From Tubulanus polymorphus (lineage: Eukaryota > Nemertea > Palaeonemertea > Tubulaniformes > Tubulanidae): 64,000 bases of DNA. Where the stretch lies: assembly GCF_964204645.1 (NCBI RefSeq), contig NC_134026.1, forward strand, positions 4,464,001-4,528,000, read 5' to 3'. Positions 4,426 to 61,100 of the stretch are shown here, piece after piece. The notes under the pieces were generated by a model that saw nothing but the letters and a program-made list of their open reading frames with translations, was not told the DNA's origin and ran no database searches. The first letter of the stretch is position 1. Each line of letters opens with the position of its first letter. Both the position numbers and the translations under genes were made by a program.

Positions 4426-4538
4426 ATCATCGAATCTTAGTTGTCGAATAAACACTATAAGCGTGTATACTGTAGATAAATGAAGAAATCCCACACTTCG
4501 AATTTTAAAATTATACGATCAAATTTATTATAATGAAA

Positions 4539-4580
4539 CCACAACGTTTCGGCTGTTGACTAACAGCCATCATCAGGTGG
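4539..4580 (-). ncRNA. minimal hammerhead motif (antisense arm of the palindrome)
   Basis: The reverse complement of this arm has the same order as the plus-strand motif 14 bp away: CCAC, CTGATGA, a 7-bp stem II with loop AGTC, GAA, ACGT, T, GTGG. The two motifs face each other across the palindrome centre, so a transcript from either strand would contain one motif in sense orientation. Confidence 0.6.
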
Positions 4581-4593
4581 AATGGTCTTCTTT

Positions 4594-4635
4594 CCACCTG
4601 ATGATGGCTGTTAGTCAACAGCCGAAACGTTGTGG
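4594..4635 (+). ncRNA. minimal type I hammerhead ribozyme motif (sense arm)
   Basis: In order: stem I strand CCAC (4594-4597), core CTGATGA (4598-4604), one extra T, stem II GGCTGTT/AACAGCC (7 bp) around loop AGTC, core GAA (4624-4626), self-complementary ACGT (4627-4630), T at the expected cleavage position (4631), and stem I partner GTGG (4632-4635). Minimal hammerheads with a stem III of about 2 bp are known in Penelope-like retroelements, where a palindromic stem III lets two copies pair as a dimer. The extra base after CTGATGA deviates from the textbook core, so activity is inferred and not certain. Confidence 0.62.
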
Positions 4636-4709
4636 TTTCATTATAATAAATTTGATCGTATAATTTTAAAATTCGAATTGTGGGATTTCTTCATTTATCA
4701 TCGAATCTT

Positions 4710-19689: not shown

Positions 19690-22600
19690 ATCTTCAGAAT
19701 ATTTTTGGATCAAGAAATACTTGTATATAGTATTATAAAAAAAATGAGCTATTAACTTCAATATTTGGTTATCTTTTCGTAGAATTGAAGTACAGTGTAT
19801 AATAAAGGCCTGCAAACGTTTATAATGTTTCTAAATTGATTATTTTCCGTTGTTTTTCTTTGTGATTCAGCAGGCGAATTAACTAATTGATTACATCGAT
19901 TCCCCATCGCCGCTCCTCGCTGGAATAGACAAAAGTTCTTTTTCCGAGAAGCTTTACAGTTTCGAAAAGCAGTCAAACAGTTTCGATTCGCTCGCGAAAA
20001 ATCAATCGAAACAACTTACCGGCAATTGATTTCGGTAGCAGTTCGATACTTGATGTTTACGGGAGAAATATTCGCCGAGAATGAATCATTTATTCGTTAT
20101 AGACGCAGAACAAAATGAAAGAAGTTCGCTAAGTTCGTTTTTGCTTCGTTGCCAAGAAAACGATCCCTTGGCGAAATTCGGTGCCTCGTTATACTGGAAA
20201 CCGTCAGTGCATTTTTCGATTATGTTCTGTTTTACTACATCCCGGCTAAATCGACTTAAGTCATAGTATCAACAAGGAAGCTAACTTGAAAAAAACGTCC
20301 GAATCCAAACAACCCCACAATAAGTCAAAAGTTCACAAACTCCTCCTCGACCTTTTGCGTCTTTTATGGACAGTTCCTTATTAGATAGACATGCAATTTC
20401 TGTTATGGTTTCTAGGCGTAAGTCATAGTATTAAAAATACATAAACTCTATATGTGTTTTGATGGTACATATGTAGCCGGATATGCGGTGTTTGTAATGT
20501 GCGTAGATCTAATTTGGCTAGATCTTTTTGTACCGTAACTAGAGCGGACAATGCGTTTCGGGAATTCTTTCGATGGAGTCGGTGTAGTCAATCATATGGC
20601 GCCTTGATTGTATATTCCTAGCAGGTTCTTTGCTTGATCAGTCACGCAATGACCACTCACTTCATTTACATCGAATAGGAAACATCCAAACGACTTTTGA
20701 TTGGCATTGTTTATTGACGTACATAATGGAAATGATGAACGGATTCGTTCGCGGAAAATTGAACATTTTCTTCTTGCGGTTAATAGAACGCCATTTAGTT
20801 ACCTAAACTGCACTCTACAGATCTTTCGTGTCCTGAAGATAACTAAAGGAAATGATACGTATTGAATAATTTGCAAACGAACCAAAATACAAGAACCGAT
20901 CCCATTATGAAAATGAGGTAAAATAGGAAACCAAAACAATACACTGATGTTTTCTTAACGAAGCCTTAGATGAGTAAAGCAATAGTATTACGAATGAATA
21001 TCTATAAACAAAGACATCGTGTTTTACTTTGCGAATCCGATATATCCGGATGAAGTCTTATGGCGAAAACACGTGATACGATGAAATTATTGATCGCAGC
21101 GCGTAATTATATAGCTCCGAAGAAACGTTCAGTACGAATAAGTGTAAATTGGTCAAAATACCGAATCCCGACGTCCACATTTACATTTCCAGCATGTAAT
21201 GATTACACTATCACGCAATTCTTTCTGTTCGTTAAGATCTTAAGCGAATTTTGCGATGTGAAATGTAGACATTCCAATTTCAATCCTCACGTCGTTTTAA
21301 CGTCATCATTTTTTCAAAACTATATACTTCAGATTTTTAACTTTTTAATAAAGTTCACATGACGTTTTAATCTTATTGCAGATAAAACACGGAAAAATGT
21401 ATTTCTAATCTCTACTGTGACGCAGTGAATACCGTTTTTGCGGATGATGGGCAGCTAGACATTTCTAACGATTATTGGAATTTGATGGTGTCGGACGAGT
21501 GGCACCGACAAGTCTGATCTGTCGTAAAACATATTTTTCGGCCAAACCGCTTTCTGACAGCTTTTCGCTGATCAATTTTGTCGATTTTCTGACACTTATG
21601 CCTCCAGCTTCCGCAATCGATGCAAAAAATTGTTATGTTTACAGCCAACTGTAATCCAGGTCTGCTGCAACATGGCTGTTTCAGACGACGGCTTGTCATA
21701 CGGCGCTTCAGGTCGGCAACGAATAGAAAATCATCGAGCGCCAAAGAGATTTGTGCTGTGTTTCTACTTAATATATTTTCGATAATCAATAAATCGAGAC
21801 TCCTTTATTCATGTCGAATTATGCCATGGTGTATTGATTATCATTGTTACTACGAGATGAATTGATGATTCTTAAAACTGAGTAGACACAACCTTAACCT
21901 CTCTAAAAATCCATCCATCATTTGAACTCGGTAAAAAATCTCGGTATATGCAGGAATAGTATTTTTATATGGAGGGATATGAAATTATCCATATCTTAAT
22001 CGCCCACGGTGTGAGTTGAATTTGGTACTGAATTCAAATTTAGATCAATACTATCGTTAATTATCTAATAAAGTGATTCGATTCAATTTCCGAGATTGTC
22101 AGTTACGAATGAAAAAAACCAGACGATGATCTCTACAGTGAGATAGAAACGTCGTGTCTTATTTCTTTGAATAAATAAATTCTCGATTTTAAATTTCTTT
22201 TAATTTGGGTTTTTATCTTGTTATCCGTTCACCACGTTTGAGTGTGGTTATTGTACTACGAATGCAATCATTTTGCCAGACAAAAAAAACAATAACCACG
22301 ACCCTCCAATGCAGCCAAAATCCTCCTATTCGCCAATTCGCGCAATTATAGGTGATTTAGAACTAGAGCTTAAACCACGATCTCCCCCGGTGTGAAGCAT
22401 CCATCATTTCTGCGAACATACTGGTCAAAATATCCGCTTTCTTATGTGTTCCACGCTCAGTAAGTTAGTTCGGGATGTCCCTCGACACCGGAAATCTCAG
22501 GCAAAGGAAATACCCCTCATACATAGTAATGCATCGGTTGATCTAATTGGTAGTCGTCAGACGGCGTTGAAAACGAGTTTAATAGAAAGCAGCCATTTAT

Positions 22601-36787: not shown

Positions 36788-37194
36788 TCAAAACATGGCT
36801 GTAACTGATAGGATTAAAGAACAGCGACTGTTCTCAAGTTCATTCACAAACAGAAAATCAATCATACAATTATGCTGGCAATCTGTAATCGCTGGCCATT
36901 GGTCATTTCTGGTCATCTGGCAATTGGTCATCCCTGGTAGTTGGTAAATTAGGAGATGACCAATTACCAGAAGACCAGGGATGACCAAAGGTTAAAACAA
37001 AATGTAGAATCATTAACGATACAAGCTGGTCAGCCAATCTAGTCGGGTAAGATGCAGCTCCAAACTCAAACAGTTACTGAGAAGCCAAAACCGAGGTGAA
37101 CTAAAGTCCCAACGTCACCAGACCTCCTTAAGAGCGGGCAATCTGTGATTGCAGGAGGACTGATTGCCTCCTCAGGATGCACACTGCTACTGAG

Positions 37195-37412
37195 GAAGAG
37201 GCAGAACTAGATGATGATGATGAGGAGGCAGAACTAGATAATGATGAGGATGCAGAACTAGATGATGATGAGGAGGATGCAGAACTAGATGATGATGAGG
37301 AGGAGGAGGCAGAACTAGATGATGATGATAATGAGGAGGAGGCAGAACTAGATAATGATGATGATGAGGAGGAGGCAGAACTAGATGATGATGATAATGA
37401 GGAGGCAGAACT
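37195..37412 (+). repeat. GAT/GAG-rich minisatellite (acidic-codon repeat), array 1
   Basis: Units of GAGGCAGAACTAGATGATGA with variable numbers of GAT and GAG triplets. All length changes are multiples of three, so one frame stays open and reads AELDDDDEE-type repeats. No signal peptide, splice sites or homologous domain support a protein. A second array in the same orientation lies at 38357-38540. Confidence 0.8.
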
Positions 37413-37485
37413 AGTGCAGGTGTCAATGAATGACCTGAACCCCCGGGTGAGGCATTCGATTATTTCTATTTTCAAAACGACAGGC

Positions 37486-37696
37486 ATATGACAAGGAGTT
37501 GTCGAATAAACACTATAATCCGTGTAAACTGTAGATAAATGAAGAAATCCCACACTTCGAATTTGAAATTATACTGGACATTCCACCTGATGATGGCTGT
37601 TAGTCAACTGCTGAAACGTTGTGGTTTCGTAATAATAAATTTGATAGTATAATTTCAAATTCGAAGTGTGGGATTTCTTCATTTATATGACAAGGA
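37486..37696 (+). mobile_element. Penelope-like, hammerhead-bearing element, copy 2, with target-site duplication
   Basis: The 12-bp direct repeat ATATGACAAGGA at 37486-37497 and 37685-37696 brackets the element 37498-37684. It begins GTTGTCGAATAAACACTATA and has inverted outer parts (GAAGAAATCCCACACTTCGA / its complement at the right end). Start and end match copy 1 at 4439-4696. Unlike copy 1 it holds only the sense ribozyme core, so copy 1 carries an extra inverted arm. Confidence 0.7.
37583..37624 (+). ncRNA. decayed minimal hammerhead motif
   Basis: CCAC, CTGATGA, stem II GGCTGTT against AACTGCT, GAA, ACGT, T, GTGG in order. Two changes in the 3' strand of stem II create a U-U mismatch and a G-U pair relative to copy 1, so folding should be weaker. 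Core residues and stem I are intact. Confidence 0.5.
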
Positions 37697-38356
37697 TTCA
37701 CAGACAGGGCATACTGGTCAGACAGGCATACTATCACAATTAGATTTGGTCAATTTTTGTGCACCAAGGCATTCAACATCTATACGTCAACTACGACAAG
37801 ACGCGGTACGAACAGAATCGCCATCAACGGGTAACACTGATTAGCGTCAACAACCGACAACAAGCGTCAATAAGCGTTAAAACGGGTCCGGTGCATCAAC
37901 AAGCGGCAATTCATATTAGCATTTTAGATTACAGGTTTTAAGAAGATTTTGCAATGTCCACGGGGCGCAATAATTCAATTCAATAAAACTTTATTATACA
38001 GTTGTATCCATATCTTCCATGGGACAGGCAACCAGTCTTATATCCATCAGGATTGAGATATGACGTCATCGTTCATTAGATTGAATCCTCGGAATGGAAT
38101 TTGGGTTCGTTGAGAGTCCGACGTTTATTCGACGTTTGTTCAATTTCATTAATATTCCGTCAGTACAGAGATACAACATTGATACAGAAGTTCAAAAATT
38201 CATTTCGTTAGGCTGTCTATTAAAACACGATAGTGAATTGATTCATGTACGACAGGCAAACAGCATCGTATGGACATCGTATTGATCGTATGCCTGTCGA
38301 ATGCCTTATCGGGGGGGGGGGGGGGGGGTTCAGGTCATTCATTGACACCTGCATAG

Positions 38357-38540
38357 ATGATGATGAAGAGTAGGCAGATCTAGATGATGATGATGATGAT
38401 GATGAGGAGGCAGATCTAGATGATGATGATGAGGAGGAGGAGGCAGAACTAGATGATGATGATGAGGCAGAACTAGATGATGATGACGAGGAGGCAGAAC
38501 TAGATGATGATGATGATGATGATGAGGAGGCAGAACTAGT
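38357..38540 (+). repeat. GAT/GAG-rich minisatellite, array 2
   Basis: Same unit and orientation as the array at 37195-37412, with longer pure GAT runs and an early in-frame stop (GAGTAG). It is probably a duplicated array. Confidence 0.8.
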
Positions 38541-58100: not shown

Positions 58101-61100
58101 TTCGAAGATTTATCTACACTGTTTGTAAATATGATACCGCAGAGTACATGGAAAGTACAGCAATCAATACTACAATCTATGGCTAAACTCTGGGAAAGGT
58201 ATGACCGAAAGTTTTTTATAGTTGTTCTGACACGAAGCATGCATATTACATAGATGATACATTTTCTTTATGAGTATGTGTTGTGTATGATTTCAACACT
58301 TAACCCTTTCAGTGCGTCTACACTGCAGTGCGATGTATAAATCGGTGATAGCTTTTGCTAGTACACCGCACTGCGGTGTATTGATGTAATTAGTAATTAT
58401 CTCTCTTGAAAAATGGCAGCACCTCGAACATAGTGAAATACTAGTAACTAACGATACACCGCGTCATAGTGGTATTCCCGTTATTCAACACACTAGGGTG
58501 GAATTTTTCCAAAATTTTCAAATAATCTCCAGCACTATAGGGTATTTATTAGTCGGCACTGAAAGGGTTAAGCCATTACAAACAGTTACCAGCACATTTT
58601 CAAAACTTAAGCCATAACAAACAGTAACATTTTCAGTTAGTATCTAACGTCTCGGGTCTATCGATAAATGCACGATTGAAATAATTTTCGCACGTCCGTA
58701 CGAAATCGTACGTTAGTGAAACAGTACAGCACCGGATTCAGCGCGTTGCTCAGGAAATACGTGACGCTCAACGCTTTGTGGTCCTTCACCAGTTTCAGAC
58801 GAATTCCGAAGTACGGCAACCAGCTGAAAATGAAGACGAGCGTGACGACCAGTAAAACTTGAGCGAGTTTGACCGCGCGTCGTTGTTCGATCGACGCGGA
58901 TTTCTTCACCGACGGTTGAATTATCGTGTTGTGATACGTCGAACGCGGTCGGTCGTCGGCGACCGTCGAAACCGTCGACATTTCGGTCGAATCGGTGCTG
59001 TTAGTGACGGCGTCGTCCGACGAGCCAGCCGGTCGCGTAGCTTTCTTCGCCCGCATTCTCTTGCATACGACGACGAAAACGTGCACGTAACAGACTATAA
59101 TCGTCAGCGATAGAGCTATGAACAGAAAGAAGAAATACCGGTCCATGACGGCTTTACCGGTCGGTTTGATGTAGCGTAGATCGGTTCCTTCTTTGTAGTC
59201 GCCGGTGTAAAGGTAGACCGTCGAATTTCGGTACGGCGCGTAAACGAATCCGCCCTCGCTGATCGAACTCGGTATTCCTTGCAACGCGCACGCGATCACG
59301 GTGATCGCGATGATCTTTCGCGCGCGACGCGGCGTGATCGCGAACTTCAACGGTCGGCAGACGGCGTAGTAACGATCGACGGCGATTTCGACGAGGAAGA
59401 ACACGCTCGTTATCAACAACGTGTCGTTGAACCATTCGATCACGCCGCAGATCCACATCGCTCGTCGCGGTATCAACACGTACGAGATGATCGTCTGATA
59501 CGGCATCAGGATACCGCTCAGTAACAGGTCGTGTACGGCTAGCGCGATGATGAAATACGTCGTCGTCGGTTTCGTCTGGTGTTTCGCGTACACGACGATC
59601 ACCAGAATGTTGCCGATGACTCCGACGATCGTGAGAAACACGAGCAACGTCGTCATTTCAATCGTTTCCCAGGTTTTCGTGTCGAAGTTATACAAACAGT
59701 ACGCGTAAGAGCGAATGTACTCTCGTTTGAATTCAGTTATGTTCAAACTGTCATTAGCGGTGGAGAATTTCTGCATACATTCAACGAGCTTCATCTTGTC
59801 GTTATAAGCCGGTATTCCAATTTAATATACTGTCTTCGTTGTTTCTTTTCTACAATTTGCAGTACAGTTGTACAACGTTCGCAACGCTGTTTGACAAGAT
59901 TTGACTCTTCAATGTCACTTGTAGTTTATACACAAGTTTAAACAATGTTTGTTCCTGGTTTCCAGTTATTAGAAACAAAACAGGCGTCATTGAATATTGA
60001 TGCGTATTTTGATAACGATTCATGTAACAAAAAGCCACTCCATCATAATAACTATCTATTCATGAAATTTTTCAGACACCGTTTATCACATGATCAACTG
60101 TTTGGGTTTTCAGCATATCCTTTTACATCAATGATTTTTAATGATCCATTATGCTCAACAGATACATAGCAGTAATTTTGTCGATTCAATTTCGATGAAT
60201 TACTATTCATTTAGTATTAACTTACGTCAATTGAACTTATCTGTTAAATGAAATGTAGTTTTTCTGTTAACCGATATCGCGTGGTTTGTACCAGACACGT
60301 CTAATTTCGACGAATCTATCCGTTCGACTCTTTCATCTATTTTATCGGTGAGAACTGTCGCTCCAACTCTCTCAGCAGGTGTGTCTAATCTTCTACTACC
60401 ATGCTGTTCATTGACAGTTTTTGCTTTAATCTTCCAATTCTTGTCGCGTCGAGCTGTGTTGTGTGTTAGGTTTAATCCATAGACGTTCTTGCTGCTGACT
60501 TACGGATGAATAGATGCAGACTCCACCAGAAATTGCGTGGAATAATTCCTTCCTGATTTCTTTTGCGTTTTAATCCCGACGATTTTAATCCTAATTTCAA
60601 CCTTTTAGATCATCATGTAGCAGATCGAAAAATTCTTTTCAAATCAAATTCCACGTTTTTTTAATATAGTTTGATTACCAAGTCTCCTCTCCATTTTAAG
60701 GTGTATGTCACACCATAAAACTATCAGCTGCCTTTATCTCATTCATCCATTGGTGAAATTTAATATCAATCCTTGTGCACAAGATTTTGCCATTGTCTTC
60801 ACCTGTGTATGTTATTCCGGTAATCGCTACAATTTCTCTGATTTTCAATATCGTGTATCAGTTAGTAAACGTACCCCGTGGATTGATAATACAGAACTTG
60901 ACTATCGGCTGTACTAAGATAACTGTAACTGCGATCTTGGACATCATCACGATCAAAGACAAGATAGCTGAATTCATCGGTGGCTTGTTACTGGCATCGA
61001 TGTCTTGCCCTCCTCATGAACCGTGTTCGTTTTCGTTTGAAGATTGGTATAATAAGAACACAAATTATGGACATACGTCTATTGATGATCCTTGCCTCCC

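What the first reader, a model, noticed from the sequence alone, without database searches (positions are those of the whole stretch)
4426..4709. Penelope-like element carrying hammerhead ribozymes, with borders fixed by target duplications
Two copies (here and 37486-37696) share the same start and end. Each is bracketed by its own direct repeat (13 and 12 bp), and each contains the ordered hammerhead blocks CTGATGA, stem II, GAA, ACGT, T, with CCAC/GTGG as stem I. Minimal hammerheads are established in Penelope-like retroelements. A short non-coding, two-copy family with variable duplications suggests a small non-autonomous ribozyme retroelement mobilised in trans.
Basis: partly seen in the sequence, partly recalled or inferred. 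Interest (0 to 1): 0.8.

Follow-up and report, generated by a model that had tools for sequence, protein, structure and literature searches.

The report
Palindromic footprints of failed retrotransposon copying
Two short inverted-repeat inserts look like leftovers of a Penelope-type retrotransposon that copied only the first ~145 letters of its messenger RNA onto both cut ends of a chromosome; many related copies show where the copying enzyme starts and stops, and suggest that the RNA's built-in self-cutting ribozyme had usually not cut the RNA that was copied.

Summary
In detail: 4439-4696 and 37498-37684 share ends and carry their own 13- and 12-bp duplications. W1 holds two strict hammerhead motifs, one per strand; W2's stem II is damaged. 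Rfam finds no hammerhead.

The Penelope-like (PLE) link is supported: the same ends occur on an element encoding RVT_1 plus GIY-YIG.

"A small non-autonomous family" is not supported: 72 independent two-armed copies have 65 distinct central junctions. 51 of 72 carry an exact duplication of at least 8 bp (0 of 1424 in mismatched pairs).

Best reading: each copy is an independent dead-on-arrival product of the PLE enzyme. Both target strands prime reverse transcription inside the mRNA leader, usually one at site A (+145) and one at site B (about +107); the cDNAs run toward the mRNA 5' end and join head to head. In samples chosen without regard to arm ends, 18 of 68 arms (family 1) and 6 of 18 (family 2) stop at -3..+3 of an Inr-like TCATT, with TATA-like sequence at -31. 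Exact stops at the ribozyme cut are 3 of 122 arms; 100 of 122 run past it, so templates were mostly uncleaved. Transcription start, two-strand priming and joining are inferred, not shown.

The parts
4426..4438 (.). left target-site duplication of copy W1, ATCATCGAATCTT (13 bp)
4439..4584 (-). W1 arm A: antisense leader (pLTR) copy from start site A (+145, with 'tail') to about -1
4439..4475 (-). W1 'tail' (between start sites A and B)
   Evidence: alignment; exact extent by inference
4539..4580 (-). minimal hammerhead motif on the minus strand of W1
4585..4591 (.). W1 central junction / filler, GTCTTCT
4592..4696 (+). W1 arm B: sense-oriented leader copy, from about +2 to start site B (about +107), no tail
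4594..4635 (+). minimal hammerhead motif, plus strand; predicted cut 4631/4632
4697..4709 (.). right target-site duplication of W1
37486..37497 (.). left target-site duplication of copy W2, ATATGACAAGGA (12 bp)
37498..37574 (-). W2 arm A, stops at +68 (tail present, no hammerhead)
37575..37684 (+). W2 arm B, from about -6 to start site B
37583..37624 (+). hammerhead core of W2 with a stem II mismatch; predicted cut 37620/37621
   Evidence: sequence; fold; not reported by the strict search
37685..37696 (.). right target-site duplication of W2

Best explanation
W1 and W2 are dead-on-arrival insertions made by a Penelope-like element's own reverse transcriptase/GIY-YIG endonuclease. The enzyme cuts both target strands with a stagger of about 10-15 bp. 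Each 3' end primes reverse transcription inside the 5' leader of the element's mRNA, usually one at site A (+145, end of the tail) and one at site B (about +107). Both cDNAs run toward the mRNA 5' end, pass through the uncut hammerhead and often stop at the transcription start (Inr-like TCATT, TATA-like sequence at -31). The two cDNA ends are joined head to head, often with microhomology or filler, giving a near-palindrome (135-465 bp, median 245, in 72 copies) with a duplication. If the RNA carries a further unit upstream, the A cDNA can continue through the ORF and a longer element results. Shown by sequence: ends, duplications, junctions, arm limits, link to the coding element, a second family with the same layout. 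Inferred: two-strand priming, transcription start, joining, uncleaved template, and that these short copies are dead.
For: Coding link: L117, a natural copy, carries the same leader and tail beside a 713-aa open frame with RVT_1 (2e-9) and GIY-YIG (5e-5).
Independent events: 149 tail sites in 122 groups by left flank, after dropping two sites that lie inside the element; 72 groups are two-armed within about 500 nt, with 65 distinct junctions; exact duplications of at least 8 bp in 51 of 72, against 0 of 1424 mismatched pairs.
Two start sites: among the 72, arm A starts at +145 in 62 and arm B at +106..+109 in 57; no second tailed arm was found within about 500 nt in 123 groups.
Stops, family 1: sample T = the 94 tail places with at most 1 mismatch; 92 mapped, 68 independent ends. 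18 of 68 lie at -3..+3 (18 of the 60 inside -199..+144, P 1e-17 against a uniform spread) and 11 at +4..+14.
Stops, family 2: of 161 exact tail places the first 18 were cut out; 6 of 18 A arms and 4 of 12 B arms end at -3..+3 of its own TCATT; none of these 30 ends at +41..+43.
TTTATAT (family 1) and TATATAT (family 2) both begin at -31; T[AT]TA[AT]A starts at -33..-28 for 1.3% of window positions.
Ribozyme: ends exactly at +42 in 3 of 122 A arms and 1 of 72 B arms; 100 of 122 and 57 of 72 run past it.
Arms of one copy resemble each other more than arms of other copies: 0.927 against 0.882, 0 of 10000 permutations (51 of the 72 copies qualified).
Precedent: PMC11167929 (parts 1-2 of 4 read) reports, in vitro, internal initiation at two sites bounding the tail, both strands cut and extended, and ribozyme mutants that still insert.
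Against: No RNA or protein data. The start site is inferred from the pile-up and promoter-like sequence; the TATA test was made after seeing the sequence, and the uniform null is crude. Junctions often sit in TGATGA repeats, so ends at +4..+14 are blurred by several bases. A weaker pile-up at +35..+46 (7 of 60, P 0.005) straddles the ribozyme cut and the base of stem II, so some true cleavage run-off is possible. 21 of 68 sample-T arms run beyond -3. Three junction types recur (4, 4 and 2 copies), and some of those copies are close relatives of each other, so limited spread of a ready-made palindrome is not excluded. Copies with unequal arms could in part be later one-sided deletions. In family 2, tails lie at both ends of one place (C2:9820686 on + and C2:9820968 on -), so one-A-one-B is not absolute. 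The first, similarity-ranked family 2 set showed little pile-up: 1 of 12 A arms and 2 of 10 B arms near +1 (L178-L189; its reference is reliable only to -53). PMC11167929 saw no difference of start site between strands.
Confidence: 0.78

Rival explanations
1. A small non-autonomous ribozyme element (animal retrozyme or SINE-like) that propagates as a unit, mobilised in trans by the PLE enzyme.
For: Constant ends, many copies, duplications; three junction types recur in 4, 4 and 2 independent copies.
Against: 65 distinct junctions in 72 copies; no TATA-like region inside copies that stop near +1; unequal arms; same ends continuous with coding elements; inverted pairs, not the direct tandem repeats published for animal retrozymes.
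Confidence: 0.07
2. The palindrome propagates as one family, and its centre was later rearranged at each site by hairpin instability.
For: Palindromes are unstable (general knowledge, recalled); several copies have tandem 35-39-nt units at the centre (L045, L063, L069, L070; L120); one-sided deletion could make unequal arms.
Against: Eight copies carried inside one larger host repeat (L029-L033, L035, L041, L064) kept one junction apart from GAT-repeat number in 7 of 8; L064 has a longer centre. 9 of 72 B arms run beyond -3, which trimming of a palindrome ending at -2 cannot give.
Confidence: 0.07
3. Snap-back: one cDNA folds back and copies itself, giving the palindrome without a second priming event.
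For: Palindromic outcome; self-complementary AACGTT beside the ribozyme cut, seen at the L053 junction.
Against: Arm B starts at its own site, about 38 nt from arm A's, in 57 of 72 copies (+106..+109); arm B reaches at least 10 nt further than arm A in 23 of 72, though a later one-sided deletion could explain part of these.
Confidence: 0.08
4. Hammerhead-cleaved RNA (5' end at +42) is the usual template, and shorter arms are run-off at the cut.
For: Excess of ends at +35..+46 (7 of 60, P 0.005); exact +42 ends in L058, L099, L123.
Against: 100 of 122 A arms run past the cut; in family 2 none of 18 A and 12 B arms ends at +41..+43; much of the family 1 excess lies at +36..+40, beyond the cut.
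Confidence: 0.05
5. A MITE or other DNA transposon with inverted ends.
For: Inverted repeats and duplications.
Against: Ends are not symmetric (tail usually on one side), duplication length varies, ends are continuous with RT plus GIY-YIG coding elements.
Confidence: 0.01

Closest known systems
Canonical EN+ Penelope-like elements (e.g. Adineta vaga Pen2a; PMC3846280, parts 1-3 of 5 read)
   Same: RT plus GIY-YIG, pseudo-LTRs in direct and inverted orientation, optional 31-bp tail on one inverted pLTR, Inr-like pLTR sequence, duplications of 8-10 bp
   Different: Here many copies carry only leader sequence as a near-palindrome, and arm ends pile up at the Inr-like site. Clade within PLEs not tested.
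Poseidon of Anolis (PAc) in-vitro system (PMC11167929, parts 1-2 of 4 read)
   Same: Internal initiation at two adjacent sites that bound the tail, priming on both strands, a stem-loop at the start site, ribozyme cleavage not needed
   Different: In vitro, one element; here genomic copies, usually one A and one B start per insertion, arms often ending at the presumed cap site
Animal non-LTR retrozymes (PMC7229834, part 1 of 6 read; PMC7761336, passages)
   Same: Small, non-coding, type I hammerhead, likely dependence on PLE enzymes
   Different: Retrozymes are direct tandem repeats with canonical hammerheads and circular RNA; these are inverted pairs with helix III reduced to ACGT
Twin priming of LINE-1 (PMC2837659, search listing with start of abstract only)
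   Same: Inverted, truncated cDNAs between duplications
   Different: L1 priming starts in the poly(A) tail at its 3' end (listing of PMC3649969); here both cDNAs start inside the 5' leader at two fixed sites

Membership tests
Penelope-like elements (source element) | RT and GIY-YIG endonuclease in one frame, flanked by the same pLTR | tested here: met
   L117: RVT_1 256-427 and GIY-YIG 613-646 of a 713-aa frame, leader copies on both sides
Penelope-like elements (source element) | pseudo-LTRs in direct/inverted array with a tail | tested here: met
Penelope-like elements (source element) | target-site duplication | tested here: met
   51 of 72 with at least 8 bp exact, 0 of 1424 in control
Penelope-like elements (source element) | RT in the telomerase-related PLE clade | not tested
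   no tree built; called Penelope-like from RVT_1 plus GIY-YIG and the pLTR/tail layout
Minimal type I hammerhead ribozyme | conserved core with stems I and II | tested here: met
   W1 both arms, L117, L175; W2 stem II mismatched
Minimal type I hammerhead ribozyme | covariance-model hit | tested here: not met
   no Rfam hammerhead at gathering score or at E up to 10; PLE form lacks helix III per PMC6155905 and PMC7761336 (passages)
Minimal type I hammerhead ribozyme | self-cleavage | not testable with these tools
   needs RNA; genomic ends at +42 are rare
Animal retrozyme | direct tandem repeat of ~170-400 nt units | tested here: not met
   W1, W2 and the 72 two-armed copies are inverted pairs
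Animal retrozyme | circular RNA intermediate | not testable with these tools
   no RNA data
Self-propagating non-autonomous family | copies share internal structure by descent | tested here: not met
   65 distinct junctions of 72; three types recur
MITE / DNA transposon | symmetric terminal inverted repeats and fixed-length duplication | tested here: not met
   one-sided tail, duplication length varies

The most novel reading that the evidence does not exclude
Nearly every insertion of these PLEs is made by two reverse-transcription starts, one at site A on one target strand and one at site B on the other, on capped mRNA whose ribozyme has not cut. Because both starts lie only about 107-145 nt from the cap, a one-unit mRNA can yield only a dead palindrome, and a full element needs a multi-unit transcript. 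The ribozyme would then work against insertion by decapping the leader, or act only at a later step. The genome would thus hold a near base-resolution record of PLE transcription start, priming and stopping.
Probability: 0.5. Interest if true: 0.66.

Novelty: new variant of a known kind. Interest (0 to 1): 0.52.

Why it matters
How Penelope-like elements insert and what their hammerhead does are called poorly known in the papers seen (PMC11167929; PMC7761336). If this reading holds, ordinary genome assemblies contain many natural insertion products that record both start sites, the RNA 5' end and the junction repair, and PLE-bearing genomes can test the in-vitro model. It also warns that dispersed minimal hammerheads in animal genomes may be dead insertion footprints, not ribozyme genes or retrozymes. 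My paper searches (open-licence PMC only, listings read) showed no description of leader-only PLE palindromes, but three key papers (Cervera 2014, Lunse 2017, Craig 2021) were not held, so priority is unproven.

Tried and rejected
No gain: Rfam at E up to 10 gave only sub-threshold microRNA/sRNA hairpin matches, which the palindrome explains. An early idea, from similarity-selected copies, that no arm ends at the ribozyme cut was corrected when pattern-selected copies showed a weak excess at +35..+46. DNA-transposon, retrozyme, snap-back and palindrome-instability readings were ranked lower (see rivals). The host species was not identified (268 Mb, 77 contigs; C1-C12 are over 11 Mb each, lengths); that it is an animal is a guess from the element type and one receptor-like frame, not tested.

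Rows dropped before counts: sample T has 94 places; 2 were not mapped by the script (C1:630262, in L120 with a rearranged leader; C2:9127520, in L080 with a nested insert); 92 fall into 69 groups by left flank, one of which (L011 and the inner leader of L117) lies inside the element and was dropped, leaving 68. Sample T holds only well-kept tails. Arm coherence used 51 of 72 copies. Family 2: 18 of 161 places were cut out, all on C1 and the start of C2. A script error ended part-way; the missing parts were redone in 51, 62 and 79. A draft of this report was returned once for checking; some searches were made for that check, and odds for the best reading did not change.

Full report
What is there. 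W1 (4439-4696) and W2 (37498-37684) sit between exact duplications of 13 and 12 bp. W1 is a tail plus an inverted leader copy (arm A), a 7-bp centre, and a second leader copy in the opposite orientation without tail (arm B). W2 has the same layout, but its arm A stops at +68. A strict hammerhead search finds only the two W1 motifs in the window and none in 20 shuffles. Rfam lists no hammerhead; no positive control was run.

It is not a two-copy family. The 258-bp W1 query gave 88 matching stretches, with only 40 of 800 candidates scored. A 28-base end pattern has 301 places with at most 1 mismatch, control 0 (both arms of a copy can match); a tail pattern has 158 with at most 2, control 0.

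The source is a Penelope-like element. L117 (C1:13429300-13433450) has an inverted leader fragment, a direct leader with tail, a 713-aa open frame with RVT_1 and GIY-YIG, and a 3' leader with tail. TTCCGGCACA occurs at both outer ends. Its inner leader ends at +9, as if a two-unit RNA had been copied to near its 5' end; that is inference from one copy.

Coordinates. I number the leader from the A of the Inr-like TCATTC (+1). The hammerhead cut lies at +41|+42, site B at about +107, site A at +145.

Independent events. 151 tail sites in the fetched loci fall into 123 groups by left flank; two sites in one group lie inside the element, leaving 149 and 122. 72 groups have a second arm within about 500 nt. 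They show 65 distinct junctions. Three types recur: (+9,-2) in 4, (-2,+9) in 4, (+1,+9) in 2. The first two overlap by three bases, so microhomology can explain recurrence, though some of these copies are also close relatives. Exact duplications of at least 8 bp occur in 51 of 72, and in 0 of 1424 mismatched flank pairs.

Two start sites. Arm A starts at +145 in 62 of 72, arm B at +106..+109 in 57 of 72. No second tailed arm was found within about 500 nt in 123 groups; copies with two B arms were not sampled, since selection required a tail. In family 2 one place has tails at both ends (C2:9820686 +, C2:9820968 -), so the rule has at least one apparent exception. Arm B runs at least 10 nt further than arm A in 23 of 72, A further in 25, 24 are within 10. 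This favours two priming events, but a later one-sided deletion could explain part of it.

Where arms stop, family 1. Sample T is the 94 tail places with at most 1 mismatch listed, chosen without regard to arm ends; 92 mapped, 68 independent ends. Arm A ends: 8 at or beyond -200 (or the reference limit, -208), 13 at -199..-4, 18 at -3..+3, 11 at +4..+14, 1 at +15..+34, 7 at +35..+46, 10 at +47..+144. Among the 60 within -199..+144, against a uniform spread, P is 1e-17 for -3..+3 and 0.005 for +35..+46. The null is crude.

Where arms stop, family 2. A GIY-YIG search and a leader query led to a second PLE family with its own hammerhead, CTGAAGA..GAAACGT, with the A and B sites at the same numbers. 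In that similarity-ranked set only 1 of 12 A arms and 2 of 10 B arms (L178-L189) stop near +1; the alignment gives -6 for the A arm of L185 (by eye -2) and +1 for its B arm, and most others run to -30 or beyond, with -53 the limit of that reference. I then took the first 18 of 161 exact tail places. A arms: 6 of 18 end at -3..+3, 1 at +5, 2 at +25/+26, 1 at +65, 2 at -35/-38, 6 at the reference limit of -252. B arms: 4 of 12 end at -3..+3. None of these 30 ends at +41..+43. So the pile-up is repeated in a second family.

Why +1 is probably the transcription start. RT that has crossed the folded ribozyme has no evident reason to stop at +1, whereas an RNA end there would stop it. TTTATAT (family 1) and TATATAT (family 2) both begin at -31; T[AT]TA[AT]A starts at -33..-28 for 1.3% of window positions. 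This is after-the-fact evidence. Copies that stop near +1 lack this region, so they probably cannot start their own transcripts.

The ribozyme. In 100 of 122 A arms and 57 of 72 B arms the copy runs past the cut; 3 and 1 end exactly at +42; 5 and 2 at +41..+43. Hence most templates were uncut at insertion. This agrees with the in-vitro report that catalytic mutants still insert (PMC11167929, parts 1-2 of 4 read). The family 1 excess at +35..+46 may mix pausing at stem II, joining through AACGTT, and some cleavage.

Arms of one copy match each other better than arms of other copies (0.927 vs 0.882; 0 of 10000 permutations reach it; 51 copies), as expected if both cDNAs came from the same RNA population.

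Literature. PMC3846280 (parts 1-3 of 5) describes PLE copies with inverted pLTRs, a one-sided tail, duplications and an Inr-like pLTR sequence. PMC7229834 (part 1 of 6), PMC7761336 and PMC6155905 (passages) describe retrozymes and minimal PLE hammerheads of unknown role. The passages seen of PMC12910113 and PMC6431247 added nothing on palindromic copies. Absence of a prior report rests only on the listings.

Verdict. Real, well bounded, and very probably a Penelope product; not a self-propagating small family. The value lies in what the arm ends say about PLE copying.

Noticed in passing
G000:C5:7313699-7320438: Four endonuclease matches of a related PLE lie as two on - and two on +, each pair 2856 bp apart: a head-to-head pair of tandem dimers, as expected if multi-unit RNA were copied from both target ends. 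Similar -/+ pairs lie at C11:476663/477353 and C5:8554880/8555617.
   Followed up: no
G000:C2:9820686-9821003: Family 2 place with tails at both ends in inverted orientation: an apparent A/A copy, the exception to one A plus one B.
   Followed up: no
L045, L063, L069, L070, L120: Several palindromes have tandem 35-39-nt units (about -2..+33) at the centre, suggesting repeated template switching near the RNA 5' end.
   Followed up: partly
L029-L033, L035, L041, L064: One palindrome sits inside a larger host repeat present at 8 fetched places; its centre differs mainly by GAT repeat number.
   Followed up: partly
L130, L132, L133, L137, L138, L141, L147, L157, L158, L161-L164: Thirteen tail sites share left flanks and stop at -16: a PLE fragment that seems to ride in another repeat.
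   Followed up: no
window 37191-37414 and 38356-38513: Tandem repeats of a GAGGAGGCAGAACTAGATGATGAT type; W2 lies just beside the first array.
   Followed up: no
window 22206-22258: 53-bp match at 94% to L173, a locus with a third PLE-type endonuclease.
   Followed up: no
window 58658-59794 (-): 378-aa open frame that looks by eye like a seven-helix receptor; no family search was run.
   Followed up: no
sample: A related PLE family (about 57% identical endonuclease) has many endonuclease matches with equal scores and some open frames of 817-841 aa, so it may have been active recently.
   Followed up: no
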